Source of the DNA: Onthophagus taurus
Taxonomy: Eukaryota; Arthropoda; Insecta; Coleoptera; Scarabaeidae
Direction: 5' to 3'
Assembly: GCF_036711975.1 (NCBI RefSeq)
Contig: NC_091971.1
Location: 2,487,501 to 2,551,500 of the forward strand
Length of the DNA stretch: 64,000 nucleotides
In this document: piece after piece, positions 333 through 58,920 of the stretch
How the letters are laid out: each line of letters begins with the position of its first letter
How positions within the stretch are numbered: the first letter of the stretch is position 1
The notes under the pieces: generated by a model
Databases searched by the model: none
The model's input: only the letters and a program-made list of their open reading frames with translations
What the model was told of the DNA's origin: nothing
Position numbers and translations under genes: made by a program

Positions 333-1050
333 CGTTATTTATTTTCCCTTACAACGTACAATTATCGATATTTAATTATAATATTGTTTTTACTGAAATG
401 TATTGATAAAAATTGAAATTAAACGATCATGAACCTTATTAAAATGTGATTTATTTTCTAAAATCAACCATAACCACATCTTATACAGAATGCATCTGAA
501 TGACTGCAACAAACTTCAAGCGGTGATTCTTTAGTGAATTTTAAGGGTATTTTGATATATGAACCATGGGCGACTTCGACTCCCCTAAGGAGCTACACCC
601 CTCCAAAAATGACGGAAAATTTTGGTTTAATTTTTTTTTCTCAAAAACCATAAACGCTAGGAAAATGAAATTTGGGGGATATGTTTAACTCATAATAGGG
701 CACGTTTTGACCCTATTTGTACTTTCAACCGCCCCTTCTAAACTACTACACTATACCAAGAACTAGAAACATTTGGGATTTTAGTTTTAGGTCTAGTGTT
801 AGTTCTAGTGATAGTGCTAGTGTAGAACTAGAACAAACACTAGACCTTTAATTAAATTAATATTTAAATTTAATTTTTAATATAATTAAACAATCATGAA
901 CCTTATTAAAATGTGATTTATTTTCTAAAATCAACCATAACCACATCTTATATACACAAATAAAACTGAATTAACATTATAATAAAATAAATTATTTATT
1001 AGAAGTAATACTTATTGAATTATTTAAACAGAATTAGGCCGTTTATGTTA
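333..1050. repeat. Intergenic repeat insertion flanked by 68-bp direct repeats
   Basis: No gene. A 68-bp sequence at 418-485 (ATTAAAC.ATCATGAACC to ATCTTATA) recurs almost unchanged at 885-952. Between the copies lie a truncated arm of the foldback element described at 39215-40393 (486-about 740, beginning CAGAATGCATCTGAATGAC directly after TA) and a CTAG-family fragment (about 757-848). The arm resembles the right arm of the intron copy more than the left one (shared TGATATATGAACCATGGG). The remainder is AT-rich and probably contains the 3' UTRs of the two convergent neighbours. Confidence 0.75.
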
Positions 1051-2039
1051 TTACATTTTTGATTGCTCGATGTATTGATAATTCCCATCAATTTCCTTCA
1101 CTTTTTTCTCTCTAACCAATTTTGTTAAATGATGTTGAACATTGTAAGCGGCTGCTAAATACAATTCTTTAGGGGTTTCAATGTAAATCGCCTCCACCAA
1201 TTGCATAGGTGTATATTTTCGTTTAGGTTCGGTAGTTAAGACACTAATTATTTGATTTTCTCGTTGTTTTCTATGATCTATGTAATATTGAATTTTTTCA
1301 ATAGGCTCATGAATGATATTTCCATGTCCAGGATAAATAATTGATGGCTGAATATCCAAAATACTCTCTAATGAATTCATATAATCGTATAAATCCTCAA
1401 AAACAGCTGTTCCTTCACCCAGAATACAATCGCAACTAAATACGGCGTTATCTTCAAGTAGATGAAGCACAACATGGTCTGTTGTATGTCCTGGGGTGTG
1501 AACAATTCGTATAGTAGCTCCTTCAACTTCAAATTCTTGACCATCTTTCAAAAAATCAAAGGAAATGTTATTTGGAAGCTCTTCAACTTTAACATCAGTT
1601 CTTGGATATTTCCAAACTTGACAATATTCTATAATTTTTAAAAGAATTTTATTAAAAGTCGAATTTAAGGTTATTTATTTATTCTTACTCGTATGTTCCT
1701 TTATTTGCATAACATCAGAAACACCCCCAATGTGGTCATGATGCCAATGTGATATAAATATATGAGCCAAATCAATTCCATTTTGTTTAAGAACCGATTT
1801 AAGATGATTTATGTATTGTGGTACATCAGCATCGCCAGTATCTAATAAAATTCGCCTTGAAAAGAAAATATTTACAATAAGTTAATGCACTATAATTAGA
1901 TGTTCAAAGATAAATACCTTTTTCCTGTTCCAATAATGTAGGTGTTAGTACCTTGGAGAGTCATAGGCCCAGGATTTGCTCCAAGAACTCGGATAATTCT
2001 TGGGGAAAGTCTGCTTACACTTGGTATCACAGCTGCCAT
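1051..2039 (-). CDS. LACTB2: LACTB2, metallo-beta-lactamase-fold endoribonuclease
   Basis: Homologue of LACTB2, a metallo-beta-lactamase-fold enzyme known in mammals as a mitochondrial single-strand endoribonuclease. Three exons on the minus strand: 1918-2039, 1689-1855 and 1051-1616; all joins are GT-AG and keep frame, giving 284 aa, close to the human 288. It starts [20 protein letters not shown] and then has [13 protein letters not shown], a hallmark of the family. Metal ligands are visible: H77-W-H79-H-D81-H82 (HWHHDHIGG), H140 in [10 protein letters not shown]159 in [10 protein letters not shown], and H194 in IYPGHG. The family usually has FSGDC, so the Cys at 158 is a local substitution. 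The C-terminal third (about residues 200-275) is the winged-helix-like extension typical of LACTB2. The gene is divergent from PEBP-A across 654 bp. Confidence 0.95.
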
Positions 2040-2693
2040 TCTTAATAATGTTATAAACCTAAAAATTTATGCTTATTTCAACCTAAACATGTTTATTTTT
2101 CATTCAATTTTACATTATTATTAAAAAAACAAAGTGACGTTTTAAACGTCAAAAATTGTAACTTTAGGTTATGTTGACATGTCATCGTTATGTAATTTAA
2201 ATAAATCTATATTAACTGGCAAAGTAAATTTATTACTTACAAATTTGACAAGAAATATAAACTAGAAGAAAGATAAACTCCACTTAATAGGATTAAATTT
2301 CTTGTAGTATGCTTTTCGATTGCCCGAAATATAGAGCTAAGATTGCATCTGAGCGAAGTTTATATGTAAATCAGTCCGAGTGGAAAAAAGGCCGACTCAT
2401 TCATTACTGATATTGCTAATAAAGATTGAAATTATTACTATACCGGTTTAAACCGACGTTGGAGGTCAAGACTTGATCTTAAATGAGGAATAATCTTAAT
2501 TTAGTCGATTTGCTTTGATTTATAAGTTATTTTTAAAATAATTTCACTAAAATATTTATTTAATTTAAATAAAAAGATAGATAGTTACTATAACAACATA
2601 CCCCTTCTTTTTTTATAACAAACTTTCTATCAACGGATCAAACACAGTTTCTCTTTGTCAAATCGTTTTTATCCAGGTAATACCTTTATAAAG
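2040..2693. promoter_or_regulatory. Divergent LACTB2 / PEBP-A upstream region
   Basis: This 654-bp head-to-head interval contains GACGTTTTAAACGTC at about 2134-2148, followed at about 2167 by TAGGTTATGTTGACATG. The same pair of motifs recurs elsewhere in the window. It lies about 100 bp before the LACTB2 ATG, as expected for a TATA-less housekeeping promoter. On the PEBP side a TATA-like TTTTATAA at about 2610-2618 lies roughly 30 bp before TCAAACACAGTTT, a possible initiator region. Assignment as promoters is inference from position. Confidence 0.5.
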
Positions 2694-3308
2694 ATGTTAA
2701 TTCGCGCAACGATACTCCTCATAGTTACTTTATTAGCACGTTATTCATCAACAACGGATATAACATCGTTGATGGAGAAAGGCGGTGTAGTTCCGGATGT
2801 TATAGACACAGCCCCGAAGACCAGTTTAGAAGTCCTCTACGCAAATAACGTGAAAGTAGACGGTGGAAATGAATTAACGCCAACGAAGGTTAAAGATGTA
2901 CCTAATGTTAAATGGCAAGCAGAAGAAGGTTCATATTATACTTTAATTATGACCGACCCAGATGCTCCAAGTAGGACAAATCCAAAAATGAGGGAGTGGC
3001 ATCATTGGTTGGTTGGAAATATTCCCGGAAATGATATTAAGAAAGGTACGACTTTATCGGAATATATCGGATCTGCTCCACCGAAAGATTCCGGTTTGCA
3101 TCGTTATGTTTTGTTGGTGTTTAAACAACCCGGGAAGGTTGAATTTTCTGAAGATAAATTGACTAATAAGAGTGGAAAGGGGCGAGGAAAATTCAATACT
3201 AAATCATTCGCCCAAAAATATAATTTAGGAAATCCCATCGCCGGAAATTTTTTTAAAGCTCAATGGGATAATTACGTGCCTACAATTTATAAACAATTAA
3301 GTGGTTAA
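2694..3308 (+). CDS. Secreted PEBP-family protein A (single coding exon)
   Basis: Phosphatidylethanolamine-binding protein family, 204 aa, most likely secreted. The frame is open further upstream but has no ATG, so the first ATG at 2694 is chosen; it gives a hydrophobic signal segment MLIRATILLIVTLLARYSS. The mature part has the PEBP anion-binding motifs: DPDAPSR at D88, H115-region EWHHWLVGNIPG, the GLHRYVLLVFKQ motif with H136, and a C-terminal NPIAGNFFKAQWDNYVP helix. Insect PEBPs include odorant- and immunity-associated members; the ligand cannot be told from sequence. The coding region has no intron, whereas the convergent paralogue at 4751-5435 has one after the signal peptide. The two share domain order, similar length and the same DPDAPSR position, so they look like a local duplicate pair. 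Confidence 0.92.
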   Translation: MLIRATILLIVTLLARYSSTTDITSLMEKGGVVPDVIDTAPKTSLEVLYANNVKVDGGNELTPTKVKDVPNVKWQAEEGSYYTLIMTDPDAPSRTNPKMREWHHWLVGNIPGNDIKKGTTLSEYIGSAPPKDSGLHRYVLLVFKQPGKVEFSEDKLTNKSGKGRGKFNTKSFAQKYNLGNPIAGNFFKAQWDNYVPTIYKQLSG

Positions 3309-6246: not shown

Positions 6247-9200
6247 TCAGAAATACAATTTCAGAATATTTACCGCAGTTCCAATCTTTTGCAAATACTT
6301 ATTTCTTATTTGTATGTCTGAACTTGGTTGCATTGCGTCACCTGAGCTTTCACCTTCCTCCTCATTCACGTCCTTTAGCAGTCTTTCTTTATCTTGACTC
6401 GTCCTACATCAAAAAATTATTAAAAAAAAATAAGCTAATTAAGAAAAATTGTATCTCACGATAAATACATTTCCCTCTGTTCACGACGTAACGGTGACAT
6501 ATTCAACGTTCCATCACATCTTCTGTCCCAAATCCACAAACAGATTGTAGCCATAAACGAAACTTAAAAAAATAATTAAATAAAATTAACAACCTCAAAT
6601 AAAACATCCTTACTCGCCAATGAATACAAAAAGAACATTTCCAACCAAAAATACCCATAATGATGTTGAATGAATCCAGTTAATAATGATATCACAGCCA
6701 TACCTAAATTTTGAACAGCTTGACAGCTAAAAAAAGATAAATTAAATCTTTTTATGTAATAATTTCGACTTCATCATATTAATTACATTCCATAAGCAGT
6801 CCCCAAGTGGTGCTCAGGTACTAAAAGTGCCACCAAAGGCCATAAACCACTCGCCAATAATGAATATCCAATTCCCATGATGGCCATACCCACGTAAGGA
6901 TTTAAATAAGTAAAAATGATGATGGAATGAGCGATCGCAGTCGTTATTATGGAAATTACAACGAATGTTAAGTTTCTACCCGCCTTATCAATTAAATAGC
7001 CCAAAAATGGGGATGCTACACCGGATATTAAATAAATTATGCTATTTACGTTATTGGCTTGTTGTGGTTCTAAATTAAATCGTTCTATAAAAAATTGCCT
7101 TAAAAAAAAGATCAAATTAAAAATAAACTTTAAATAATCTATTTTTTTTTTTGATAACTTACTTTCCTAGAGCTATAAAAGGGAAAATAGTCACATAATA
7201 AGCGGTTATTATAACTGAAACGAGCCAAAAAGCACTCGGAAAATCTTTAACGCTTAACAAATTGGCTAAAGGAGATATGTTCGTTTCAGTTTGTTGTCTT
7301 CTTAAAAGCCTATCGGCTCGTTTATTCATACAACCGAGAAATAAGGAACACACCATCGATATTATACACGAAAATCCGGCTATAAATAATGCTAAACCTA
7401 AACATTCGTATCCCGTATAAGTATGTCCAACCCATTGGTAAATAGATTCCATAATCCAAAAGTTTACGGTACTTCCAATTCGAGCTAAACTCAATTGAAG
7501 CCCGAAAACCATATTCAATTCTTTCCCTTTAAACCAAAGTACTGCATAATTATTTTGGGCAACAGCTAATGATTCACCACCAGTTCTAAAATTAATTATA
7601 TGTTTTGTATGGAGTGTGTACTAATTTTTGTTTATAGATATACATAGTTATTTAATTAATTTAGTTGGGTTGCATATCCATTAGTAGATGTTTTGTACTT
7701 AATTTGCTCCAAGTTTTGTCTTAATTTGCTTAAAGTGCTCTAGCACTATCACTAGAACTAATACTAGACCTAGAATCATTCGGGTTTAGCCATCTTGAAA
7801 GACGTGCGGCTAAACCCGAATGTTTCTAGTTCTATTTGTTTTCAAGAAAACTTCCGAAAATGTAATATTTAATATTATTACTAATGCAAGGACGAATTCA
7901 ATGGTAATTTTTAGCTTAAAAGTGGGTATTTTGTAGAGAAATAGATTGTGAAGCTACTTTCTAATGATTTTTTGTGCCTTATAATACTCGTAAGTCATTT
8001 TCATGAAAATATGTAGTTACGTTCTTGTGATCCTAAATCCTCGACTAGTACTGTTACTATGTAGAACTAATACTGTACCTAGAACTAGAATCATTTGGGT
8101 TTAGCAGCGCGTCTCTAAAGACGACTAAACCCTAATGATTCCAGTTCTTGGTCTAGCGCTGCATAACAATTAAAACTAGAACTAATACTAGACCTAAAAC
8201 GGGAAACATTCTGGTTTAGTCGCACGTCTTTCAAGACGGCTAAACCTGAATGATTCTAATTCTAGGTCGTGTTAGTCCTAGTGATAGTGCTAGTATAAAA
8301 CTAGAACTAACACTATACCTAGAACTAGAATCATTCGGGTTTAGCCGTCTGTAGAGACGTGCGGCTAAACCCAAATGATTCTAGTTCTAGGTATAGTGTT
8401 AGTTCTACATACATAGTAACAGTGCTAGTCTAAAACTAGAACACTAGACCTAGGACTAGAAATATTCGGGTTTAGCCGTCTTGAACGACGTGCAGCTAAA
8501 CACGAATGTTTCTAGTTCTAGGTCTAGTGTTAGTCTAGTGTTAGTCTAGTTTTATTTGTTATTCAGGGCTAGATTGTTGTATATTTTTATTGAGGTTATA
8601 TCGAGGTTTTACAGTAATGTCAAATTATATTGACATGTTGTATTGTATGTAGGACAAAGTAAGTTGGTACGCCCTGTTTTCTATGGAAATATGTTTTTGT
8701 ATATTGCATCTTAAGTAAAATTCAATGTATATCTATAAACAAGTTTTATTTAATTTTCTTAGTTTAGAATTTATAGAATATTATTTAGTTTATTCTTCAA
8801 AATATAAAAAAAAATTTTATTAACATATTTTTGTAAAATAATAAAAGATGGCGTTGCCTAAATTACAAAAAGTCACCTGTCAAAACTTCAAACTGAGTTA
8901 AAATAAGCTCTCCAACCTTTTTTTTATTGAATGTAAGTACAAACCTTTATAAACATTTAATTTTCATTACTTTTTAATTTTACATACCCAAAAATAAATC
9001 GTCCCAATGCCATAACCCAAAATTCATTTTGTATTGTACCATAAGCAAAAACGACTTGACCTAATAACGTTAAGAACATGTATATATTTGTTCCAAGTCC
9101 TATACCAAAAACACTTAAAGAAAAAGTTGGTTTATTGTATAAAAATATTTCAATTTTGACCTACCTATCTAAAAGAAATCCGCCCACGAAACATAAAACA

Positions 9201-10992: not shown

Positions 10993-11018
10993 AATTTAGA
11001 TTATAAAAATAAAATATT

Positions 11019-14009: not shown

Positions 14010-14140
14010 TGGGGTTGGTTCTAGTTTTGCTCTAGCACTGTTACTAGAACTCATTCGGGTTTAGCCGTCTTGAGAGACGTGCGGCTAAACCCGATTATTT
14101 GTAGTTCTAGGGCTAGTGTTAGTTCTAGTTTTAGTTCTAG
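14010..14140 (+). repeat. CTAG palindromic repeat, single unit
   Basis: One unit with the core GGGTTTAGCCGTCTTGAGAG, then ACGTGCGGCTAAACCCGA, flanked by TTCTAGTTTTGCTCTAGC on the left and GTAGTTCTAGGGCTAGTG on the right. Confidence 0.85.
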
Positions 14141-16024
14141 CATCAAAACTATTCGAACTCCAAAACCCGACCTGTGGAGCAAGAAAACGATAAAACCCCA
14201 AACTAGAAATCAGAAAAACAAGAATGTTATAATACCAATAGAAATCCTATGAATTTGACATTGATAGATATAAAAAGAAACAAAGTGTAGGTAAATTGGA
14301 AACACCTACTTTTCTGACAAAGTAAAATCACCATGACGCATAAATTCGTAATCAAGTACACAATGCACCATAAGATCCTTCTTTAATCTAATAATAAGTT
14401 TCACTTATAACGATACAAAATCAAAATTGAATAAGCACTTATGCACGATTAAAAAGATGTATAAAAGGAAGAGATTGAAACATGAAATTGTTTTAGAGTC
14501 GGAAATTTTGTAACGTTCAAGGAGAACATTGACGTATGACCGTTTCAACAGCGAGTGTAAATTGAGCTGAAATAATTTGCATACATTGATAAATTATTTT
14601 AGGCGTTTATTCGTGTACACTGCAAGTATTTAGCAATATTGATATGAGTTATAACATGGAAAGTTACTAAATGAGTATATGTACATGTATGTTGAACGAC
14701 TACTAATTGTAGATGAATCATATTCTTGAAATATAAAAGTAAGATCACTTTTTCTTTAAAAAAAAAAAACGTAATCGAATTTAATCCACATAAAAGAGTC
14801 ACTCATTTAAATATAAATTCGTGACCGGTCTGGTCACTGAATATATTCGGTCTCTAAATATAGACCTTGGCGAAATTCGAACAAGATCGCAGTCACGTAC
14901 CTCGCGGATCTCGGTCATAGGCGTGCGTGCGCCATCGAGAGAGGCAAACGCGAGCGCGCGCGCCTCTGACCCTGGGGCCAACCTTGCGAGAAGCCGGCGC
15001 AAAATGACCACGACGCCGTCGTCGTCGTTGAAATAAGAAAAAAAAACGCGTTCCGCGACGTCCACAATGGTCATTTATTGTGGGAGGGGAAACCCCCGTT
15101 GCGTCCCTCTCGGTGTATGCCCCCATAGCGGATGCTTATTGAATCGTTTACGAGTTTTCTCGGGAGGGAGAGAAGAACCGGTCACTTTTAAAGTCGCGGG
15201 GATAAATAAAGTTTATAGGTATGCTCACGGACCCCGTAATTGGGCGCCGCCTCGTCCTACGTGTATGAGGCACAAAGGGCATTTTGCCTGAACAATCCTC
15301 TTGAGTAGCTCGATTGTAAGTGGAAACGTGGGCGAAATGGATAACTGATGAACGTATTATGCTGAAAGGATTTTGTTGGATGTATGTGTTATCTATGGAT
15401 GATTTTGTACTTAATAAAAGTTTTTCTTACTACATTAGCTAAGTAAGAATTATTTAATCTTCCTTCTAAGAAGCTTTCTTTAAAAGCTATTACAAAACCT
15501 TTTAAAAAAATGAAGAAAAATAAATAACGTTACGCGTCCATAACTCTCGAGAAAGAGTTAAGAGTCCAAGACGTTCGGCCAACAATAAACTGTGAGAGCA
15601 ATTTGAATACCTCACTGGTCTTAATGCAAAATGTATTCGCGCGGTTCAAGTCGTTTTAACGACCGAAAGATAGCTAAGAGTCAAAAAAGAATGCCGCACC
15701 CTATAAAGAAAAGGACGCGGCCATCTGCCGCAGACGCCACAAGCGATTAACGCCCCGTTAATGGGGCTTTTACGACGCGTTAGTTTTGCAAAAAAAATCG
15801 CCTCCTCATTGATAAAGCAAAAAAAAATTAATTTTTCGATAAAATAAAAACTCTCTCGCTCCTTTGTTGCGTTATCTGCGCGTTATACAATCGATAATTG
15901 CATTGTATTTAGAAAAGATCACCTTGGATCTGATAGCGGATCGTTTCTTTATTGAATTTGCCAACAATACAATACTACCTGACTCTCTGATCTTGCTTAA
16001 TTCCTTATGTAATGTCGCAGTAAG
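14141..16024. other. Intergenic with a GC-rich island
   Basis: No gene recognised. Positions about 14820-15290 are GC-rich (runs such as GCGAGCGCGCGCGCCTC and CGACGCCGTCGTCGTCG) and give open frames on both strands, the usual sign of composition rather than coding. The remainder is AT-rich. Confidence 0.5.
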
Positions 16025-17105
16025 ATTTCGTATTTCATTTTAAGTAATCTTAATAATCTTATAATCTTCTTAAAAATAAAAAAATTTTAATGTCAACGAC
16101 AACATTCCATACATTTTTATTTTTTTAAACAAAAACGAAATCGAGGAAAACACGTTTTGTATTTTCTAAGGTGCTACTACAAGTTTTAAGTTTTGTTGGT
16201 CTCTTTGTTTTGATAAACTTAAATAGTTGAAAGGAAGATATAATGAAGAAGATATTGAGTTATATCTAGTTATATTATTAATAGATATCTAGTTTTAGGT
16301 CTAGTGTTAGTTTTGATGCTAGAACTAAAACTAGAACTAGACCTAGAACTAGAAACATTCGGATTTAGCCAGCTTGAGAGACGTGCGGCTAAACCCGAAT
16401 GTTTCTAGTTCTTGGTCTAGTGTTAGTTTTGGTGCAGGAACTAAAACTAACACTGAATCACAATTACAACTAGAACTAAAACTCGAAACATTTGGGTTTT
16501 GCTGCACGTCTCTAAAGACGGCTAAACCCGAACTCTTCACCTCTTCTTTCTAATATTCAGAAGGCGCTTTGATGTTTTTTTATTTGGGCAGCAGTGTTCT
16601 TGACCCCATTTATGCTTTGTTTTTTTTTTCGCTTCAGTAATTAACTTCTGTTTTTCTCTTTAGTTCTATGGTGAGGTGGAAGATCACATATTGAACCTCA
16701 TCATAAGTTTGATCATCGCAGATATTTATTTTAAGTATTTTGTTCTTATATTTGTATTTTTTTTGTATACATCTGATTATCAATAAACCATTATTAGTAT
16801 TATCAAACCCGAATGTTTCTAGTTCTAGGTCTAGTGTTAGTTTTGGTGGAAGAACTAAAACTAGAATTTCGTATTTCATTCTAAGTAATCTTAATAATCT
16901 TATAATCTTCTTAAAAATACAAAAAATTTTAATGTCAACGACAACATTCCGTACATTTTTATTTTTTTAAACAAAGACGAAAACGAGGAGAACACATTTT
17001 TTATTTTCTAAGGTGCTACTACAAGTTTTAAGTTTTGTTGGTCTCTTTGTTTTGATAAACTCGAATAGTTGAAAGGAAGATATAACGAAGAAGATATTGA
17101 GTTAT
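16025..17105. repeat. 240-bp direct duplication flanking CTAG repeats
   Basis: A 240-bp sequence at 16025-16264 (ATTTCGTATTTCATTTTAAG to GATATTGAGTTAT) recurs at 16866-17105 with only scattered mismatches. CTAG-family units occupy 16285-16540 (two hairpin cores, one in each orientation) and 16805-16865. The second 240-bp copy starts immediately after ACTAGA of a CTAG arm, so the junction coincides with the repeat edge. Between 16541 and 16804 is unique AT-rich sequence. Confidence 0.85.
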
Positions 17106-21320: not shown

Positions 21321-21327
21321 GTAATAT

Positions 21328-21450
21328 ACTCGGCTAAACCCGATATTTCTAGTTCTAGGTCTAGTGTTAGTTCTACTTTTAATTGTGATTCAGTGCTATG
21401 TTGCTGTATATTTTTATTGAACTAACAATAGACCTAGAACTAGAAACTTT
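21328..21450. repeat. CTAG palindromic repeat, partial units
   Basis: CGGCTAAACCCGATATTTCT followed by AGTTCTAGGTCTAGTGTTAG, then the recurrent end segment GTGATTCAGTGCTATGTTG and TATATTTTTATTGAACTAAC, then a second arm AGACCTAGAACTAGAAAC. It begins within a few bases of the end of the 565-bp tandem duplication. Confidence 0.8.
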
Positions 21451-24009: not shown

Positions 24010-24188
24010 AATAATAACTAAAACTAGAATTTACATTAGTTATTATAGAACATTAATACATTAGTTCTAGTTTTGGTTGAATAAAAACAATCTAGCAGTG
24101 ATTAACAAGTAAAACTAGAACTAACACTAGACCTAGAACTAGAAAGTTTCGGGTTTAGACATGCGTCTGAAGACGGCTAAAGTAGGTT
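24010..24188. repeat. CTAG palindromic repeat at left edge of inverted duplication
   Basis: Contains the end segment ACAATCTAGCAGTGATTAAC, the arm ACTAGACCTAGAACTAGAAA and the core GGGTTTAGACATGCGTCTGA then AGACGGCTAAA. It is cut off after GGCTAAA, where the inverted-duplication arm (TAGGTTGTTATACATACC) begins. Confidence 0.8.
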
Positions 24189-24189
24189 G

Positions 24190-37900: not shown

Positions 37901-40900
37901 CCGTCCACCAAACACCTACGGATCCATTGGGGGCAGATGAGGCAACAGGAAACATATGCTCCCCACAGGACAGACGGACAAAGCGGGCAATTATCGACTA
38001 AATCTGGCTTTCGAACTTTAATTTTCTGACACGATCTCAGGTATACAAGGGAGGAGACAGGAAGACCTTCTGTATGATTACTTTTCAAGTCGGGAAGTTC
38101 AAAATCAAATTTTTTTTAATTTGATTTACAAAGGATAAAAGAAAATTAGGAAAACACGTTTTGTGTTATTACAAAATTGAGGTGTTACAAAAGCATGTAG
38201 CGGTGTCGCGTTTTCAATTCGGAATTTCGCAAACCGCGTTCGCAGAATCGCCCGTTTAACGATCCTTATATATTTAGAGAGAGCCGCGGGCGCAGCAGTC
38301 TCTCTATTTTGGACGCATTGCAAAAGCTAAAGCCGACACACGCGCTTACACAGCACCGCATATATATACACACACAGAAACCCGAGAGAGTTTCGAAATC
38401 GCCTTTCCTAATATCCTTTCTCCGAACATCTCCCGCGGGCTACGTTGGGAAATGTCCTGGGCTGATGAAATTTTGCTACATCTCACAAAATGTCACCCGG
38501 AAATCAATAACAAGAACACCGTATTGCACTCCTATGGAGATAAATCGAAATTTAAGCTTAATTAAATTGGGTTTAAGTTTTAGGTTTTAGAAAAAAGGTT
38601 ACTGCAGTGAGAGGTGTAAGATTCCAACAACACGATTCGATTGGAATTACGCAAATTGAAAAATTTCTCTATTGCGACTTTCGTTTCGCGAACAAAATCG
38701 CGAACTGGTTGGGTGCTTTCTCCTTGTTATTGACCGCTGCAGACCCCGTAAGAGTTCAGTGGCCCGGCCATAGCACCCGGAACTCTCTGTTTTGCAACAT
38801 TTGGGACGAACCTTATTTTTACGAAACCCTCCAGCGTTCGCGTTCGTCCACACACTGTGTTAATTGAGCGGCGAAAGTATACACATTCTTTTTTTCTTCA
38901 AAATACTTAAATTTTCCTTTGTATCCATCATGTTCTTTATAACAACTTTATTCTATTTTAGTTACGAAACCTTTCTGACATTTATTGGTTATACAAAAAC
39001 GACCTCCAACTTATTTAATCAACCTGAAGGGTTACGCCAACCTGTTGCACATATACATATACAGTGAATTTCATTTAAAATGTAATATACAAAAATGTAT
39101 TTTCATAGAAACTAGGGTGCACCTGCTTACTTTGTCTTATATAAAATGCAACACGTCAATATAATTTGACGTTATAGTAAAAGAACGATATATTATTGCT
39201 TAATAAAAATATACAGGGTGTATCTGAATGACGTGCCCAAACTTCAGGGGGTGATTCTTTAGGCAATTTTAAGGGTACTTTCTTGTATAAACTATCAGCG
39301 ATTTCGACTCCCCTGCGGAGCTACGCCCCTTCAAAAATGGCGAAAAATTTTGGTTTATTTTTTAAAACCATTAATACCAAGAAAATGAAATTTGGGAAAT
39401 ATGTTTAGCTTATAATAGGGCATGTTTCGAGCCTATTTGTACTTTCAATCTTCCCTTCTAAGTTACTAAACATCGTTCAATTTTTGTCTAGATCTTTTTT
39501 ATGACGGTGATAAATACATTGGAAATATTTTATTTAGATAGACGAAAATATTCTAAAACTTTTTTGCCTCTCTGATGTTCTTCGAAAAGTTAATAGTTTC
39601 TGAGAAAAAAATTAATTAAGCAAACACTAATTGTTAAGCTGTAGCGTTGTTAATCGAAAGTTGGAATGAATTTTTAAAGAAAAAATCTTAGCAGGCTTGG
39701 CAATCTTTGTCAGAAATATGTTTGACGTTTAAATGTCAGTGATTTTTTTTACTATTATTATTGTTTTATTTAAAATTTTGAAACGTCGAGTGAACGAGCG
39801 TAAATGCGATAGAAGTTTATTCAAAAATTTGAAAAACAATAATAATAGTAAGAAAAACACTGACATTTAAACGTCAAAAATATTTCTGACAAAGATTGCA
39901 AAGCCTACTAAGATTTTTTCATTAAAAATTCATTCCAACTTTTGATAGACAACCCCGTTGTTTAACGAGCAGTGTTTGCTTTACTATTTTTTTTCTCAAA
40001 AATTAGTCGTTTTTGGAAAAATTTTAGAGAGACAAAAAAGTTTTAGGATACTTTCATCTACCTATGTAAATTTTTTTTTAATGTATTTACCATCTGTATA
40101 AAAATATTTTAGCAAAAATGTAAAGGGGGTGGTTACGTTTAGTAGTTTAGAAGGATAGGTTGAAAGTACAAATAGGATGAAAACGTGCCCTACTATGAGT
40201 TAAACATATTCGCCAAATTTCGTTTTCCTAGCGTTTAAGGTTTTTGAGAAAAAAAAATTAAACCAAAATTTTCCGCCATTTTTGAAGGTGTGTAGCTCTT
40301 TAGGGGAGCCCATGGTTCATATATCAAAGTACCCTTAAAATTGCCTAAAGAATCATCCCCTGACGTTTGGGCATGTCATTCAGATACACCCTGTATAACA
40401 ATCTAGCACTGAATAACAAATAAAACTAGACTAATACTAAGACTAGAATTAACTCTAGACCTAGAACTAGAAAGTATCGGGTTTAGCTGTACATCTGAAG
40501 ACTTAACACTAGGACGAGAACTAGAATCATTCGGATTTAGTCGTCTTGAAAGACGTGCGGCTAAATATGAATGGTTCTAGGTCTAGTGTTGGTTCTAGTT
40601 TTACACTAGCACTATCACTAGAACTAACACAAGACCTAGAACTAGAATCATTCGGGTTTAGCCGCCTTGAAAGACGTGCGGCTAAATCCGAATATTTCTA
40701 GTTCTAGGTCTAGTGTTAGTTCTAGTTTTACACTACCACTATCACTAGAACTAACACAAGACCTAGAACTAGAATCATTCGGGTTTAGCCGTCTTGAGAG
40801 ACGTGCGGCTAAACTCGAATGTTTCTAGTTCTAGGTCTAGTGTTAGTTCTAGTTTTACACTACCACTATCACTAGAACTAACACAAGACCTAGAACTAGA

Positions 40901-43900
40901 ATCATTCGGGTTTAGCCGTCTTGAGAGACGTGCGGCTAAACTCGAATGTTTCTAATTCTCGGTCTAGTGTTAGTTCTAGTTTTACACTACCACTATCACT
41001 AGAACTAACACAAGACCTAGAACTAGAATCATTCGGGTTTAGCCGTCTTGAGAGACGTGCGGCTAAACTCGAATGTTTCTAGTTCTAGGTCTAGTGTTAG
41101 TTCTAGTTTTACACTACTACTATCACTAGAACTAACACAAGACCTAGAACTAGAATCATTCGGGTTTAGCCGTCTTGAGAGACGTGCGGCTAAACTCGAA
41201 TGTTTCTAGTTCTAGGTCTAGTGTTAGTTCTAGTTTTACACTAGCAGTATTACTAGAACTAACACTATACCTAGAACTAGACTCATTCGGGTTTAGCCGT
41301 CTTGAGAGACGTGCGGCTAAACTCGAATGTTTCTAATTCTAGGTCTAGTGTTAGTTCTAGTTTTACACTACCACTATCACTAGAACTAACACAAGACCTA
41401 GAACTAGAATCATTCGGGTTTAGCCGTCTTGAGAGACGTGCGGCTAAACTCGAATGTTTCTAGTTCTAGGTCTAGTGTTAGTTCTAGTTTTGCTCTATGC
41501 TGTTCTAGTGACAGTGGGAGGTAGCGCAAGTTAGCACAAGATATCACTATGTTGTATATTTTTATTGAACTAAAACTAGAACTAACACAAGACCTAGAAC
41601 AAGAATCATTCGGGTTAAGCCGTCTTAAAAGACGTGCGGCTAAATCCGAATGTTTCTAGATCTAGGTCTAGTGTTAGTTCTAGTTTTAATTGTTATTCTG
41701 CGTTAGATTGTGGTATATTCTTATGTAGTATTATTCTTGCATTTTATGTGGGACACTGCAAGTGCACAGTAGTTTCGTAACTATGATTACTGCATTCATA
41801 TATTGCAAGTTAATGAAATTCCCGGTATAAGTCCTTTCGAAAATATAACTTATTTCAATTAGTATTATTACATTGAGGGGCTTTATGTTTTAATTATAGA
41901 ATAGTGTGTGGCCCTAGTAATGGTATAGAAAATCGGCTTATTTCAACGTAAGATGACGTAAGCCAAGACAAGGTAAACACAAAGCGAAATTTCCATAAAT
42001 CGCAACCGGCGCACCTAAATACTGAACGGGCGTAGCAGGTTACGGGCTGTTTCAAAATTGCACGCAGAAAGGAAAAAGACGGTCGGGCTCGTTATTTTGC
42101 GCCTTTTGCAAACGTTTCGCCTGGTTTTTGAAACTTGGCCCGCGGCCCTCCGCAACTCCGACGGAGTCTGACGACATCCTTACTGTGTGCCAATCGAGAA
42201 ATTCTCGAATCGGCCCAATTATCGCGAAAAGTACGCTCTCCCCGTCAACAAACTCTCCTCGTGTTTCGGTCAACGACCTTCGATTACGACTTGGAACATG
42301 ACCACATTTTTTTCTGTCTTCTTTTCTATTGTGAATTGAATACTAATTTGAAAATAAGGTGTGTTACTCTTAGACAAAGAAAAAAATTCGTTATTATGAA
42401 GTGTTAATAGTCAAAAGTTTATAAAATGAAAAGTATAATTGTGGTTTATAGAGTGTGCCCTCAGGTATCTTTCGTAATCCGGATTCTATTTGTAAACTCG
42501 GGCGCGGATATCGTGTGGTCGAAATCGTGCAACGGTGCATCGACCTATAGCGGAAACGGGGTTTGCGCGCTCACTCTATATCTAGAGTAGTAGACGCAAG
42601 AGAAATGCGGAAACGTTTGATCGCGACCGGCGCTCAGACTGCACTTGTCTACTGCGACGTCGGCGTTCCAAGGCTAAGCGCAAACGACGACGACGGCGAC
42701 GGCGTCGCTTCGATGCCGCGCCGTTCTACTAACTGTACAATTTTCGCTATTTCTATCTCCTTCAACCCACAATAACTTACATTTTCTTTACTGCTTCACC
42801 GCTTTAAACCGTTATAACAATTTATAAGAAATTTTATTACTGTATAGTAAATACAAAGAATTTTCTTTACTGTTAAATAAGTAATTTTTCAAATAGATAA
42901 GGAAAAAAGATAATAAAAAAAACGGTTCATTTTTTAGCCCCCATAAAATTTCCTGTGTATTTTTCGTTTTCGAAACTTTACATAACGATAATCCGATAAC
43001 ATTTTGAAACTCTATTTAAATTTAAATATTTCAAATATTCCTAAGCTTTTTAACACCCGGATGTTCTATGTACATTTATTACCATCATTTTATATTTCGG
43101 GGAAGCCCCACATTTTTCTCTCAATAACGATTTCAAAGCAAGTGGTTGAATGTAATAAATTTAATGTTAGCGTTCATAGCAAGCTACTATTGAAACCTAC
43201 AAAATGATGAATGCTTGAGCGAAATTGGAGAAATCGTGGGAAGAAGTCACTGCACGATAAAGAAAATCATCTATAAATATGACGTCGTACTGGAGAGAAT
43301 TTACAACGCGTTGGAAGATCGAAACGGCTTAGAGACGCCCAAGTTAAGAGAAATGGAGGCAAATCCCACTTCAAATGTAGTTCAAATAGCGAACGAAATC
43401 TCAGGCAAGTCGGAATGTTGCGGTTAATCATAAAAACTTGATAACTGCATTAAAAGAAAATGTCATGGCGACACTGTTAAACACGATGAAAACTTGGTTA
43501 TGAATAAATCATTCAACAATTTAAAAGTGCAACTCTATGATCTACGCACAAGTACTGAAAAGGAACTAAACTTGTTGGGTCACTAACCAGTTACTGACTC
43601 ATTAGTGAATTCGCTGTTTTGAATGGTCCAATCCGCATCTAAAAAACTGAGGGTGTGAAATTCGTCATCAAATCAGCTTGCGTTAGATGACCACGTCATG
43701 ATGCAACCTCCCCCTTCTTTGTTTCATGTTTCTTTGAGTAGCTTGGAAGCTGAAAACCATATAAAAACGGAGCTTTTTCCAGTTTCGCCACGAGCAAAAG
43801 GTTGAGTTGTTAGTTATTCATCACGCTGAATCATTTGGAACTGGAAACTCAAATCAGTAAGCGATCCGACATGCGACATGGACATACTTTGGATCATCCA

Positions 43901-48925: not shown

Positions 48926-49289
48926 AAAGCGGTTTTCTTTCTGTATTAAAACCACGTTGTTTTAATTCATAATTGTACCCTTTCAAAATTTTGTTCAGGA
49001 TTTCCCAACCAGGGGGGGTACGCCTCCTTAGAGGAGAAATGTCAAGAGCAAAATACTTTACAGATTCCTTTGTTAAATAGGAGATTTTGGACTGTACGCA
49101 AATTTGCAAAATTTTTCAAGTTATGTTTTTAATTATGTTGAGAAATTTATTGGTCGCGTTGAAATGATTGCATTTCACTGTTAAAAGGTAAGTTTATTAC
49201 GGACGTGAAGAAAATATGCAACTCATTTATTAATTTTATTTAAAAAATTTAAACATTAAAAAAAAATTATATTTTTTCTTATATCAAAA

Positions 49290-53402: not shown

Positions 53403-54536
53403 TACAGTGGTAGACAAAAGTCTATGTACAGCATTGAATTTTGAGGTTTTTGAACAATAGCACGCAGATTTCAGTGTGTTCGCATCTGTGATTTTGTATC
53501 TTACGTCCTAAAAGCTCCCAAACATACTCAATTGAATTTAAATTCGGACTTTGAGGAGGTGTATTCAATTGCCTGGGTACATAATATAGCAACCAATGTT
53601 TGATAAGGTTTGCGGTATGCTTGGGGTCATTGTCTTGCTGGAATATCCAGCGATCCTCGAGGGTCAAGTTTTCAATTGGTTTCAAATTTTGTTCTAAAAT
53701 ACTTTTTTGTAATTCGCGACGGTAATGAAAGCTATAACAGTACTCAAACGGGTGCTGTAATGAGACTCCTTACAGCATCCGATGCTGTAATGAGATTTTA
53801 GTAACATTTTATGGAACCAGTTCAAGTTGGTGACATTGGGTCATTAATTTTTCTAGTTGTCAATGTGACAATGTTTGTCTATGGATGTTTAAACACGTTC
53901 TTAGCATCGAATACAAGGTCCAAAATGATGAGGACATTGAACTTTGAGCAATTTCTCTTATTTTGGGAGGTGTACATGAAATATTTTTGTCAGGTGAATA
54001 CATTTTATGTTTTGACAGTTTCTAATTGTCAATTCAAATTTGTATTTTCAAGTGTTACGGTATTACCAACTGGTACATACCTATTTCCCTACATTGTCAA
54101 AATTTATTTTATTTTTGAGAAAGAAAAGGATAAAAACGCGAATTACAAAAAATAGCATAAAAAACACGTTTCATAAGACTTAAAGCACTCATTCATTAAA
54201 AAACTCGTAGCTTCGCCACTCGTTTTTCAACTTGAATTCGTGCATTTCAAACGTGTCTTACGAAACTTGTTTTTTAATATACTATTATAGTTATACCGAT
54301 CCATAATTCCATCAATGTAATGCCAGTTTTCCTACACCAGATGCTGTTATCGCCTTCCAATCTTTGCTGCTTTATAGTTGGTACTACATTTTTCAACTCT
54401 ATCGCCGTGTTTCGTTTTGTCCAAATTTTTGCTCGACCATCACTTCCAAAAATATTGTACTTCGACTCGGCAGTAAACAAAACCCTGGACCAGAAATCCA
54501 TTTCCTTATCGATATGAGATTGAGCAAATTCTAGTC
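53403..54536 (-). pseudogene. Tc1-like transposon remnant with nested insertion
   Basis: Minus-strand transposase catalytic domain in two parts. The upstream part (about 54288-54536) reads RLEFAQSHIDKEMDFWSRVL, FTAESKYNIFGSDGRAKIW and, after a frameshift, YIDGIMDRYNY. The downstream part (53403-53724) reads RRELQKSILEQNLKPIENLT, WIFQQDNDPKHTANLIKHWL and TPPQSPNLNSIEYVWELL. The DDE residues are represented by ESK, QQDND and the SPNLNSIE block. At 53404 CAGTGGTAGACAAAAGTCTA is a typical Tc1-type terminus next to TA. The N-terminus is missing: a CTAG repeat starts at 54537. About 560 bp of foreign sequence separates the parts. Confidence 0.85.
53725..54285. mobile_element. 560-bp insertion splitting the Tc1 remnant
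   Basis: Sequence between the two transposase halves is unrelated to Tc1. Near its left end are repeated words TGCTGTAATGAGACTCCTTA and GATGCTGTAATGAGA. At 54155-54277 an imperfect hairpin pairs AAAACACGTTTCATAAGAC with GTCTTACGAAACTTGTTTT, with AACTCGTAGCTTCGCC at its loop. A 114-codon plus-strand frame (53811-54155) matches no family I know. A non-autonomous DNA element is the simplest reading. Confidence 0.55.
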
Positions 54537-54725
54537 GAAGACTAGAACTACAACTAACACTAACACTAGACCTAGAACTAGAATCATTTGGGTTTAGCCG
54601 TCTTGATAGACGTGTGGCTAAATCATAAATCTAGTATTAGTTCTACATTTAGTTCAATAAATATACAACAACCGAGCACTGAATAACTATAAAACTGGAA
54701 CTAACACTAGCACTGTCACTTTTGT
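54537..54725. repeat. CTAG palindromic repeat
   Basis: Core GGGTTTAGCCGTCTTGATAG then ACGTGTGGCTAAAT, with arm CTAACACTAGACCTAGAACT. It ends with ATATACAACAACCGAGCACT and GAATAACTATAAAACTGG, the recurrent end segment. It truncates the Tc1 transposase. Confidence 0.85.
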
Positions 54726-56759
54726 GATAAGTAAGTATCTCTAATGACACTATAACACTAATTTTCTATTACCTTATTATGTTTTACAAAAACCTCATAA
54801 TTCAATTATTTATCTATTTATCTATGTATCTCATTATTAGAAGTTTCTATTATCAAGTACTGATAAAGCTTGTATCTTTCTGACCACCACAACACATTCA
54901 CTATAAATGCAAAAAATATTATAAGACATAAATTAAAATTAATTCTTTGTAGTCTTCATTATCTTGATCGTTATCTTCATACATAGAAGTATTTTACTCC
55001 GTAAATTCTTACAATCGTACTTATCTATATCACTTTTATTTCATTTTCGCACTTTAAATTTCAAAATCTAAAACTCATTGGATATAGTACATACAAAGTG
55101 TTGAATGTAGCAGGTAAAAAATAATCTCATGATAGACGTAATGTATATTTTGGAACAGCTTGCAGGTGTTTAATCGAAATGGTGCGTTAGACACATTGAA
55201 ATTCAGATTATATGGATTGTACATGCCCCACTTCCGGTTTACCAAAAACACTCCTACATCTTTGAACCCAAAAGAACCGCACCATTTGCTTTGTAGCTCA
55301 CTTAGCAGAGATTTGATTCAATAAAAAAACGAAATTAAATACTATTTTTTAATTGTTAGACATAATGATCTAAAACCCTTCCGAAACTTTCCAAAACATT
55401 TTTTTAGTTCATAGGGAACCATTAGGGAGTGTTTTTTTTTAATGAATTATTTTAATGTAATTATTTTTTGTCGTATTAATCAACATGAAAAAGTAGTTAA
55501 AGTTAAATAACTTAGGGAAGTTTTTTTGTCAATTAAAATTTTTTAACCACGTGTGCATCATCATCAATTTTAAAATTTCAAATGTGAGAACAAAAAGTTC
55601 TTTGTATATGAAATATTTCTTCGTAAAGGTTTATAAAATAATGTCTAAGCCGTCGTATAAGATATGAAAGAGGGGGAATTTAACGTTTGATAAGAGACCC
55701 GCTTGCACAAACATCCTTCCCTAGCGATAAAGTGTCGCTTCTGGAAAGTACAGCACTTTAAAGTTACTCAGCCATTTGGTAATCGTTACGTATTTGATTT
55801 AACACTTCCTTTCTTAGAATATCTAAGATTTATTTTTTTAACGGAGCAGATAGATTAATGAGTAATTTATGTAATTTATTGATTTTAACAATTGGACAGT
55901 TTGTAGTTTTTTGAAACGTGTGGCAACAGAAACTACCTCGTCAAACAAAACGGCAAACGCTGATTTAAATCCGACCTAGTTGTTTTCGAAATTTACTCCG
56001 TACAGATCTCTTGTTACATGTGACGCAAATTGCTCAGGTTATGTTTACCAGATTATCTACGGTGCCCTGGCAAGGCTTTATTGCGCGGCGTTCGAGTTGT
56101 TTATGTCCAATTGTTAGAACGCGAGGTTAACAATGGGGGGTTTAATTTTGAAACAAAGATGTTTTGGTAATTACTTTTTTGCAACATAATATAACATGCA
56201 TAATAATAAATAAAGACATTTTTTTTTTTAATTTTTCTATTAATTTTAGTTACATCCGGGCCACATAAAACAAGGACTTTGACCTCGAACTCTGAAGTTT
56301 CGTAGCGTTGAACCTTTTTTTCAACAGAGGATTAATATTTAACATCCTTCTACCTGCTGGTAGGACCCCATTCCGGCAACCAAACGAAGTGCGGGCCAAA
56401 GGGGGGGGTTTTTGTTGCTCTACTCAAGGTTACTAAAGCGTCAATCTCTGGTTAACTTTTTTTTGCGACTATATATTTTCTTTTTATTTCGAAATTCGCA
56501 TGCATAACCGATCAATTTCGGTTGCACAACGATACCCGCCGCGATGCGATCAAAAAAATAAATAAATAAAACCTCCCGGTGACTATACCACTACCATTAT
56601 CACACAATGGGTCTTTTATGACGTGTTTTAAACTAATAAATTGGCCAGTCGTGTACGGCTGCGGTCGAGTTAATAACGCAATCGTATGTATCGAAGCATT
56701 TCGATTCGTAATTTTAACACTTGATTAATATTTAATATTTAAGATGGATTAACCCGAAA
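54726..56759. other. Intergenic, nothing recognised
   Basis: AT-rich, with a G-run at about 56400. No open frame with a domain and no match to other repeats in the window. Confidence 0.5.
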
Positions 56760-57070
56760 ATTTTTAGTACTAGTTCTAATGTTAGTGTTAGTTCTAGTTT
56801 TAGTTGTTATTTAGCGTTAGATTGTATATTTTTCATTGGATTAAACGTAGAACTAACAATAGACCTAGAACTAGAAACATTCGGGTTTAGCCGTGCGTCT
56901 CTTAAGACGGCTAAACCCGAATGTTTCTAGTTCTAGGTTTAGTTCTGCTTTCAATTCACTAAAAATATAGAACAATCTAGTGCTGAATTAACCCCGAATG
57001 TTTCTATTTCTAGGTTTAGTGTTAGTTTTACTTTCAGTTCACTAAAAATATACAACAATCTAGTGCTGAA
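56760..57070. repeat. CTAG palindromic repeat, reversed core, plus end-segment duplicates
   Basis: Core GGGTTTAGCCGTGCGTCTCT then TAAGACGGCTAAACCC with full arms. The end segment CACTAAAAATATAGAACAAT CTAGTGCTGAATTA occurs twice in direct orientation (about 56957 and 57041) with a short CTAG arm between. Confidence 0.85.
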
Positions 57071-57089
57071 TTACACTTAAAACTTCTTT

Positions 57090-57400: not shown

Positions 57401-57635
57401 GTGACCCAACCCAAGCCAACCCTTTTTTTACGACGTCGGGGAAAATCTGCTAAACAGACTAGGATCTTGAGCAACCTTCTGAAGTGACCATTCGAACTTG
57501 TGATTCTAGGTCTAGTGTTAGTTTTAGTTTAATTAACACCGGCCGTAAAAGCCTTCGTACTTATATGTAACAAAAACTCTCAAAATGAAACAAAATATGA
57601 ATTTGTATGTATTCTATGTAATTCAAACAAATAAT

Positions 57636-58310
57636 TCAGAAAAGCTTCTTTCTGTTGCGCACGTTGTTGGTGAGCAATTTAAGATTTGCTACTTTGCTTA
57701 AAGATGTAGTACAACAAAGAGACTTCCACCATATAACAGAATGCAGTTCACCCCTATCCAAAGCTTTCCACACGAAATCGTTAGAAAATAATTGTTCTTT
57801 TGATTTATAATAGGCAATTTCAGTTATAAAGTTTGCTACATTAGATGCATTAACCAGAAGCGCCGATAATTTATTGATATATGTCAATGCTGCAATATAC
57901 CCGTCGTTACTGAGATGTTTTCCCATAATTTTTGAATCTAGTAAATTTGCTACTAAGTGTAAAGGTGCAACAACCATATCTCTTCGTGCCTTTAAAAGTT
58001 ATAGAATTGTTTTTACCTCTAAACCTGGGCATTCACTTTGTGGTTGATCATTCAAATGTTGAAAATAGTCAACAACACGAGAAATGCAAGGTTGGGAAGT
58101 TTGTACATTTTTTAAAATTATTGAAATGAGATTTAAAATCTTATATTATGTATCAAGTTTCTCCAAGAATATATCGCTTAAAATGTTACGTTTAACATTT
58201 GCGTCTAAAATACTTGTTATAGTTTTTGTTATAACCAACTCTTTTAAGTTTCTTATAGGGACTTTACAGCATTATCAAAACACCGAAAGCGCATGCGCAG
58301 ATACATCCTA
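57636..58310 (-). pseudogene. hAT-like transposase C-terminal fragment
   Basis: Minus-strand frame from 57977 reads APLHLVANLLDSKIMGKHLS and then WWKSLCCTTSLSKVANLKLL, ending NNVRNRKKLF. This matches the hAT dimerisation region (LHxxAxxLxPxxxG .. WWKxLC..LSKVAxxIL), where the usual SAxxERxFS block is deleted. Further upstream, 57985-58300 reads LIRNLKELVITKTITSIL and ISRVVDYFQHLND with stops between, consistent with the same transposase. No terminal repeats found. Confidence 0.65.
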
Positions 58311-58529
58311 GCTCCTAATTTATGAAAAATTTGTTTGGTAATTTACAGTAAATTACGGTAAATATGTTGGTAATTTACAAATTTACATCACTGGGTACAA
58401 TACTCCGACCCATTTAATACCCCTGTCCTCGTCTTGTCTCTGCCAGAGTCTCTGCAAACTTGGAACTGAGTTCTTCTATGTTCTTCTCCTGAAACCCAAC
58501 CCAACCCAGCCGACGTATCTTCAGACGCA

Positions 58530-58920
58530 CGGCTAATCACGAATTTTTCTAGTTCTATGTCTAGTCTTAGTTTAATAAAAACATGTAACATAATGATATT
58601 TAGTGCTAAATTTAGCCGTCTTGAAAGACGTACGGCTAAACCCGAATATTTTTAATTCTAGGTGTAGTATTAGTTCTGGTTTTAATCGTAATTCAGCGCT
58701 AAATTGTTGTATATTTTTAGTGAACTAACACTAAACCTAGAACAAGAAACATTCGGGTTTGAGAGCCGTCTTGAGAGACGTTCGGCTAAATCCGAATGTT
58801 TCTAGTTCTAGTGTTTACAATTAAAACTAGATCCAACACTACATCTAGAACTAGAAACATTCGGGTTTAGACATACGTCTTTTAAGACGGCTAAATGCGA
58901 ATTTGTGTTAATTCTAGGCG
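58530..58920. repeat. CTAG palindromic repeat cluster
   Basis: At least three decayed units: a TTTAGCCGTCTTGAAAGACG core at 58614, a unit with GAGAGCCGTCTTGAGAGACG at 58760, and a reversed core GGGTTTAGACATACGTCTTT at 58864. End segments TAATTCAGCGCTAAATTGTT and TATATTTTTAGTGAAC separate the first two. Confidence 0.82.

What the first reader, a model, noticed from the sequence alone, without database searches (positions are those of the whole stretch)
757..58920. A CTAG-rich palindromic repeat family spread over the whole window
About a dozen loci (757, 7735, 14010, 16285, 21328, 24010, 25037, 40394, 54537, 56760, 57500, 58530) share one design. It has arms of CTAG tetramers at short fixed spacings (CTAGTTCTAGGTCTAGTG), a GGGTTTAGCC/GGCTAAACCC stem and a small asymmetric loop with GACGTGC. 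Outer segments end in TTATTCAGCGCTAGATTGTT and TATATTTTTATTGAA. A full unit is therefore a palindrome of roughly 220 bp. The stem is conserved better than the arms, suggesting selection on, or a copying mechanism that uses, the hairpin. No coding part exists and I do not recognise the family by name.
Basis: partly seen in the sequence, partly recalled or inferred. Interest (0 to 1): 0.7.

Follow-up and report, generated by a model that had tools for sequence, protein, structure and literature searches.

The report
CTAG-rich palindromic repeats inside transposons
These repeats are arrays of a 108-base hairpin-shaped sequence carried inside a non-coding "jumping gene" of what looks like an insect genome; the kind is known and the hairpin shows no sign of being kept by selection, but the arrays concentrate CTAG sites, and other jumping genes that insert at CTAG land in some of them.

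Summary
The repeat family is real: all 12 listed positions lie in it or within 3 bp of it. Its stem decamer occurs 23,240 times in this 290.8 Mb genome against 189 for the reversed control, although 2 of 8 sampled places were not the family. The unit is a 108-bp palindrome, not about 220 bp. Tandem units lie inside a non-coding transposon with two related ends, A and B. Insertion at TA is supported by empty sites for two copies. It is best read as a non-autonomous IS630/Tc1/mariner-type element whose interior became a satellite, like Xenopus miDNA4. The stem is not consistently better conserved than the arms, and pairing across the loop is no better than across the spacer to the next unit. No autonomous partner was found. 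Unexpectedly, another clade of Tc1/mariner-like transposons here inserts at CTAG (62 of 64 ends) and lands in these arrays: 11 of 40 ends of one family, 1 of 24 of another, 0 of 124 background flanks. In this repeat-dense window 72% of all CTAG lies in the 7% that is repeat. Most window pieces (10 of 12 clusters) lack ends; how they spread is open.

The parts
39060..41829 (-). Complete element of the family (A end at the right, minus strand): TA, B end, nested foreign transposon (about 39,213-40,400), CTAG unit array, A end, TA
   Evidence: A/B ends by BLAST and TA on both sides; interior
39062..39159 (+). B end (CAGTGAATTTCA...), terminal inverted repeat partner of A
   Evidence: 87% identity to the B end
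41737..41827 (-). A end (reads TACCGGGAATTTC... on the minus strand)
   Evidence: 95% identity; 594 A ends with up to 2 mismatches genome-wide, control 0
40392..41700 (+). Array of 10 palindromic units, the first one partial; 7 regular units with period 127 bp at 40,618-41,487, last unit 41,576-41,683
   Evidence: nhmmer; Tandem Repeats Finder period 127, 95% matches
40999..41106 (+). One typical 108-bp palindromic unit: 46-bp arms around a 16-nt loop
   Evidence: folds as single-stranded DNA at -45.8 kcal/mol, shuffle z -17.5
7736..8750 (.). Element stretch with 5 units (7,741-8,534) and a B end; no A end found
   Evidence: B end 8,646-8,731
741..859 (.). End-less fragment of a unit next to another transposon
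14011..14173 (.). Single nearly complete unit (14,032-14,128), no A/B ends
16262..16866 (.). One full unit, one partial unit and a half unit, no A/B ends, in a locally duplicated stretch
21329..21452 (.). Half unit, spacer and arm fragment, no A/B ends
23991..24188 (.). Partial unit with spacer, no A/B ends
25027..25195 (.). Two partial units, no A/B ends
54527..54720 (.). One unit with spacer, no A/B ends
56738..57084 (.). One unit and two arm fragments with spacers, no A/B ends
57503..57534 (.). 32-bp arm fragment
58508..58918 (.). Four partial to nearly full units with spacers, no A/B ends

Best explanation
It is a non-coding, non-autonomous cut-and-paste transposon family of the IS630/Tc1/mariner kind whose interior is a variable array of 108-bp palindromic, CTAG-rich units. 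Shown: two distinct, mutually homologous ends (A and B, similarity over about 100 bp) bracket the units; every facing pair of neighbouring ends seen is A with B; elements run from about 240 bp to 3.3 kb; TA stands at the borders and two copies have matching empty sites; units occur in tandem, most often with 19-bp spacers. Inferred: a transposase from elsewhere in the genome moves the A/B elements; units multiply and shrink inside them by slippage or unequal exchange; most dispersed pieces are broken remains of such arrays or were copied without the ends. The hairpin is a by-product of the inverted-repeat design. A side effect is that the arrays gather CTAG sites, so a different clade of Tc1/mariner-like transposons that inserts at CTAG nests in some of them.
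For: A ends 306+288 and B ends 383+334 with up to 2 mismatches, reversed-pattern controls 0. 25 facing A/B neighbour pairs and no A/A or B/B pair in the held loci; 12 of the 25 were fetched because they pair, 13 were not. A versus B over 100 bp: alignment z 11.3, 0 of 300 shuffles as good. TA on both sides in 14 of 16 pairs with both termini readable; 9 of the 14 were found through an end pattern that includes TA, so 5 count as independent. Joined flanks of 15 elements: 2 (L025, L026) match paralogous sites straight across the junction; five were fetched for each, and for L025 all five have the length expected for one TA where the filled site has two. The interiors of the two longest pairs with foreign content (L093, L095) share no similarity with each other. 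Spacers are 19 bp in 41 of 105. CTAG insertion: C before TA in 23 of 24 and 39 of 40 ends of two other transposon families; units in the fetched stretch of 5 of 14 loci of that clade and 0 of 7 other DDE_3 loci.
Against: None of 21 DDE_3 loci holds an A or B end at E 1e-3 (termini could not be located in all of them), and other transposase families were not searched. Only 2 of 12 window clusters, and 1 of the 6 stem-selected loci that do hold the family, carry an A or B end in reach, so most of these units are outside recognisable elements; decay alone may not explain this. 13 of 15 joined-flank tests gave only their own flanks or nothing among the 40 candidates scored. L089 lacks the expected TA at its B end. 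In L026 the empty sites vary by small indels at the junction; in L025 a duplicated TA cannot be told from a TA brought by the element, as in any TA-inserting family.
Confidence: 0.8

Rival explanations
1. The units spread on their own, not only as passengers of A/B elements: fragments are inserted at breaks, by template switching or through circular DNA, which would explain the many end-less pieces.
For: 10 of 12 window clusters and 5 of 6 family loci picked only by the stem have no A/B end in reach; window pieces of 32-605 bp stop at scattered positions. Rough scaling (inference) gives far more units than 594 A and 717 B ends would carry.
Against: No empty site was found for any of the 10 end-less window pieces tested (only 40 candidates scored), so insertion as a fragment was not shown; loss of the ends by deletion gives the same picture. 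I saw no common terminus among the boundaries printed.
Confidence: 0.25
2. The hairpin is under selection, for example as a protein-binding cruciform, a hairpin RNA or a transposase recognition site, and is kept by compensatory change.
For: Very stable fold (z -17.5); pairing is slightly above shuffled arms (0.872 against 0.856, 0 of 500 shuffles reached it), with excess double changes at pairs 16/93 and 36/73. In full-length rows the left stem half is the best conserved part (0.955).
Against: The excess is not specific to the hairpin: arms facing each other across the spacer match as well (0.8791) as arms of one unit (0.8785). The right stem half is no better than the arms (0.901); three consensus mismatches within the arms; no Rfam family in the window.
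Confidence: 0.06
3. The CTAG richness itself is maintained because CTAG-inserting transposons use the arrays, or because the arrays protect the host by drawing insertions away from genes.
For: 37.9 CTAG per kb in the element stretches against 1.14 outside; 171 of 239 window CTAG are in them. 11 of 40 L073-type ends lie at exact element flanks, 0 of 124 background flanks.
Against: CTAG positions are hardly better conserved than other arm positions (0.921 against 0.902; 0.927 against 0.921 in full units). L071-type ends hit the arrays rarely (1 of 24 exact, 3 of 24 with one mismatch; background 0 and 8 of 124). Landing there needs no selection, only CTAG density.
Confidence: 0.08
4. It is a Foldback or Helitron/Helentron element rather than an IS630/Tc1/mariner-type one.
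For: Tandem or inverted internal repeats occur in both kinds (general knowledge; DINE-1 seen in a search listing, Tetris as a cited title).
Against: TA at the borders with empty sites, and inverted ends.
Confidence: 0.03

Closest known systems
miDNA4, a Tc1/mariner MITE of Xenopus with an internal satellite (Scalvenzi and Pollet, as described in PMC12628747; passages read; original paper not read)
   Same: Tc1/mariner-type non-autonomous element whose internal repeat exists as one monomer or as a variable array; arrays without element ends are proposed to arise from it
   Different: Here the monomer is a 108-bp palindrome rich in CTAG tetramers; the sequences were not compared because miDNA4 was not at hand
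Tetris foldback transposon and derived satellite of Drosophila virilis (cited in PMC12628747; only its title was seen)
   Same: A transposon that provided building blocks for a satellite
   Different: A foldback element; here TA borders and A/B ends point to an IS630/Tc1/mariner-type carrier
IS630 of Shigella sonnei, with preferential transposition to TA in 5'-CTAG-3' (Tenzen and Ohtsubo 1991; title seen in the reference list of PMC2170065)
   Same: Same target, CTAG with TA, as the L071/L073/L077 transposons that nest in the arrays; related by superfamily (DDE_3 domain in L071 and L077)
   Different: Bacterial; the transposons here are in a eukaryote and have terminal repeats of up to about 300 bp; the A/B family itself does not insert at CTAG (0 of 14)

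Membership tests
IS630/Tc1/mariner-type non-autonomous element | TA target-site duplication | tested here: met
   Empty sites for L025 and L026; TA on both sides in 14 of 16 pairs, 5 of them independent of the search pattern
IS630/Tc1/mariner-type non-autonomous element | Terminal inverted repeats | tested here: met
   A and B ends homologous over about 100 bp, imperfect (z 11.3)
IS630/Tc1/mariner-type non-autonomous element | Autonomous relative with the same ends and a DDE/D transposase | tested here: inconclusive
   No A or B end in 21 DDE_3 loci; best lead L077, terminal similarity to A z 5.1 and 4.4; other transposase families not searched
IS630/Tc1/mariner-type non-autonomous element | Mobilised by such a transposase | not testable with these tools
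   Needs an excision or integration assay
MITE in the narrow sense | Short (under about 600 bp, recalled) and uniform in length | tested here: not met
   A/B elements of 238 bp to 3,273 bp; part of the length is nested foreign DNA
Foldback element | Long inverted repeats built of tandem subrepeats reaching the termini, 9-bp duplication (recalled) | tested here: not met
   Termini are the non-tandem A/B ends; borders are TA
Helitron/Helentron | No target-site duplication, insertion between A and T or T and T (recalled) | tested here: not met
   TA borders with empty sites, and inverted ends
Transposon-derived satellite DNA | Tandem arrays of a monomer also found inside transposons | tested here: met
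   127-bp period array in the window, inside an A/B element; about 700-bp tandem arrays holding A or B ends on contig C5 (L096, L097)

The most novel reading that the evidence does not exclude
The CTAG-rich arrays act as a genome-wide landing site: they hold a large share of all CTAG tetramers (72% in this repeat-dense window; perhaps a quarter to a third genome-wide by rough scaling), so they capture a sizeable share of insertions of a CTAG-specific clade of Tc1/mariner-like transposons and thereby shape where that clade lives, a link between one transposon-derived satellite and the target choice of another transposon.
Probability: 0.35. Interest if true: 0.55.

Novelty: new variant of a known kind. 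Interest (0 to 1): 0.4.

Why it matters
A transposon-borne satellite of a known kind would be ordinary, but here it comes with a measurable link to other transposons: insertion-site choice (CTAG) and a repeat that concentrates that site meet in one genome. That makes the idea of repeats as transposon havens testable by counting insertions. It also gives eukaryotic Tc1/mariner-like families with a nearly strict four-base target, a preference I found on record only for bacterial IS630. Six phrases such as 'CTAG target' gave 9 papers, none of which by title and start of abstract treats a eukaryotic Tc1/mariner element, and IS630 with CTAG and target site gave 3 papers, none on eukaryotic CTAG targeting in the passages seen. 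These are limited searches of an open-access library.

Tried and rejected
Hairpin selection or covariation: rejected as the main explanation. Breakage at the palindrome centre as the source of half units: breaks within positions 41-68 were 50 of 121, 47.1 expected if uniform; in the larger set 72 of 188, 73.1 expected. Left-hand starts do peak at positions 37-45 (23 of 75), which I ascribe to the half unit next to A ends (inference). A 220-bp palindrome: 0 of 202 hairpins. CTAG maintained by selection: no clear difference from other arm positions. Known RNA family: none in the window. Unit or end sequences in papers: 0 papers for six strings each. Unit in viral contigs or prokaryote genome contigs: 0 exact matches. 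Species: Venturia canescens (290.8 Mb, passages of PMC10542567) was considered and rejected because its G+C is 39.6% against 33-34% in the sequence held here; Cotesia was only a guess; the species stays unknown. Of telomere-like TNAGG arrays of six repeats only one short TTAGG place was found. Autonomous partner: 21 DDE_3 loci looked at, none with A/B ends; a protein search with the L077 transposase did not complete. End-less pieces: joined flanks of 10 window pieces gave no empty site. Rows dropped: L009, L041 (the window's own copy) and L040 (overlaps L039) were left out of the unit alignment; L089 was left out of the joined-flank query.
Full report
WHAT WAS CHECKED. The window is G000:C6:2,487,501-2,551,500 of an unnamed 290.8 Mb genome in 33 contigs; window genes match phosphatidylethanolamine-binding protein, TAP42, complex I 51K and a metallo-beta-lactamase-like protein, and I take it to be an insect (inference). 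All 12 positions given fall in, or within 3 bp of, sequence similar to the repeat family; BLAST against a library of complete elements gives 15 stretches in 12 clusters, 4,517 bp, in the window. An HMM of the unit finds 33 units or fragments there (66 hits, one per strand). The stem decamer with up to one mismatch occurs 38 times, 1.76 expected, the CTAG triplet 15 times, 0.00 expected. Genome-wide the exact decamer occurs 11,577 + 11,663 times against 84 + 105 for the reversed control. Of the first eight places fetched, six are the family and two (L003, L008) are copies of another repeat that holds the decamer, so 23,240 overstates the family. The window holds 21 exact decamers against about 5 per 64 kb on average, so it is at least four times denser than the genome.

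ANATOMY OF THE UNIT. The repeat is a 108-bp palindrome: CTAG-rich arms of 46 bp (8 CTAG in a perfect unit) around the loop GTCTTGAGAGACGTGC. A window unit folds as single-stranded DNA at -45.8 kcal/mol, z -17.5. In the window seven regular units lie 127 bp apart in an array of ten; among 105 spacers in the held sequence 41 are 19 bp.

THE CARRIER. Loci fetched with unit or end sequence show two unlike but related ends. A ends: 306 + 288 places with up to two mismatches; B ends: 383 + 334; reversed controls 0. A and B are homologous over about 100 bp in inverted orientation (z 11.3, 0 of 300 shuffles). In the held loci 25 facing neighbour pairs are A/B, none A/A or B/B; 12 of the 25 had been fetched because they pair. 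Elements span 238 bp to 3,273 bp. Two of the three longest, L093 and L095, carry foreign, transposon-like interiors (read by eye) that share no similarity with each other; the third, L094, is a long unit array. The window holds one complete element, 39,060-41,829, split by a nested transposon, and one stretch with only a B end found (7,736-8,750).

TARGET SITE. Of 16 pairs with both termini readable, 14 have TA on both sides; 9 of them were found through an end pattern that contains TA, leaving 5 independent. The exceptions are L025 (A end directly followed by another base, see below) and L089. The joined flanks of 15 elements (L089 left out) were searched. Two, L025 and L026, match other copies of their host repeat straight across the junction (18 and 6 places listed); five places were fetched for each and aligned. 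In L025 all five empty sites have the length expected for a single TA where the filled site has TA at both element borders; three of five read CTTATAnAAAA exactly. Whether one TA is duplicated or brought along cannot be told from this, as in any TA-inserting family. In L026 small indels at the junction leave the base count open. The other 13 gave only their own flanks, or nothing, among the 40 candidates scored.

HAIRPIN TESTS. In units from the window, A-end loci and A/B pairs (180 distinct rows of 194 hits) mean column identity is 0.915 and 0.896 in the two stem halves, 0.910 and 0.918 in the arms. In the 70 full-length rows the left stem is higher (0.955) and the right stem lower (0.901) than the arms (0.929, 0.923). 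Arms of one unit pair at 0.872 of cells against 0.856 for shuffled right arms, 0 of 500 shuffles as high (171 distinct full units, a set that includes loci chosen by unit similarity), so there is some coupling. But over 95 neighbour pairs the pairing within a unit is 0.8785, across the spacer between neighbouring units 0.8791, left arm with the next unit's far arm 0.8667, and with random units 0.8466. The coupling is therefore local relatedness rather than the hairpin. Three pairs are mismatched in the consensus (14/95, 31/78, 39/70).

END-LESS PIECES. Ten of 12 window clusters, and 5 of the 6 stem-selected loci that hold the family, lack A/B ends in reach. Unit breakpoints are scattered and not in excess at the centre (50 of 121, 47.1 expected), with a peak of left-hand starts at 37-45 that I ascribe to the half unit next to A ends. 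Joined flanks of ten window pieces found no empty site. Whether the pieces are decayed elements or moved alone is open.

PARTNER. Twelve DDE_3 loci of different score classes and nine more chosen from one clade hold no A or B end at E 1e-3; their own termini were located in most but not all. The L077 family's terminal repeat resembles end A (z 5.1 and 4.4, 0 of 300 shuffles each, among 18 ends compared). But the A/B family does not insert at CTAG (0 of 14) while L077's relatives do, so this is only a lead. Transposase families other than DDE_3 were not searched.

THE CTAG LINK. Reading the termini of those loci showed C directly before TATACC in 20 of 21 ends, that is, insertion at C-TA-G. Two genome-wide pattern searches, which include several of the same places, gave 23 of 24 ends (L071 type) and 39 of 40 (L073 type) with C (the patterns demand a perfect end and exclude G at the tenth base outward). 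Palindromic units lie in the fetched stretch of 5 of 14 loci of this clade (L071, L073, L113, L114, L116) and of 0 of 7 other DDE_3 loci. Exact element decamers flank 11 of 40 L073-type ends and 1 of 24 L071-type ends, against 0 of 124 window CTAG flanks outside the repeats; with one mismatch 20 of 40, 3 of 24 and 8 of 124. In the window 171 of 239 CTAG lie in the 4,517 bp of repeat, 37.9 against 1.14 per kb. Scaling by the density of this window gives roughly a quarter to a third of all CTAG genome-wide (inference). The L073 type fits random choice among CTAG sites; the L071 type is lower than that, which tells against a simple sink. CTAG positions are not clearly better conserved than other arm positions.

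COMPARISON. The nearest described case is miDNA4 of Xenopus, a Tc1/mariner MITE with an internal satellite in one to many copies; the review that describes it also reports the proposal that such arrays lose their ends with time (passages of PMC12628747). Preference for TA in CTAG is on record for bacterial IS630 (reference title in PMC2170065). So the family is a variant of a known kind; the meeting of a CTAG-rich satellite and CTAG-specific transposons in one genome is the part I would follow.

Noticed in passing
window 39213-40400 and about 600-741: A transposon with ends like TACAGGGTGTAT... is nested in the 39,060-41,829 element (read by eye); a similar-looking piece abuts the fragment at 741. 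The flank at 741 has dozens of genome copies, many as inverted pairs about 750 bp apart.
   Followed up: partly
window 49337-51033: Tandem repeats with periods of about 65, 131 and 433 bp, 82-97% matches.
   Followed up: no
window 46485-46769: A 100-bp tandem repeat, 2.8 copies, 91% matches.
   Followed up: no
window about 16026-17113: Local duplication around the CTAG units: one outer flank of each of two pieces matches a second place about 840 bp away.
   Followed up: no
G000:C5 about 2.772 Mb and 2.946 Mb (L096, L097): Separate tandem arrays of about 700-bp repeats, one with A ends, the other with B ends, each with CTAG units and other sequence.
   Followed up: partly
G000:C8 13.54-14.04 Mb: Eleven DDE_3 transposase matches on one strand (8 with a 304-aa frame), about 36-65 kb apart, suggesting a segmental tandem amplification.
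   Followed up: no
window 2691-3302 (+) and 4757-5302 (-): Two phosphatidylethanolamine-binding protein genes facing each other.
   Followed up: no
B ends, e.g. L043 2430-2500 and window 8590-8630: Inside several B ends lies a stretch like ACAGTAAAACCTCGATATAACGGATCAATACGGGG, which looks like the terminus of a pogo-like element (recalled, not tested).
   Followed up: no
L071, L075, L112, L115 and one search list: CTAG-inserting DDE_3 transposons have inverted terminal repeats of about 257-303 bp made of short internal repeats; 17 listed DDE_3 matches share the score 72.7 bits, 15 of them with a 363-aa frame, suggesting recent activity.
   Followed up: partly
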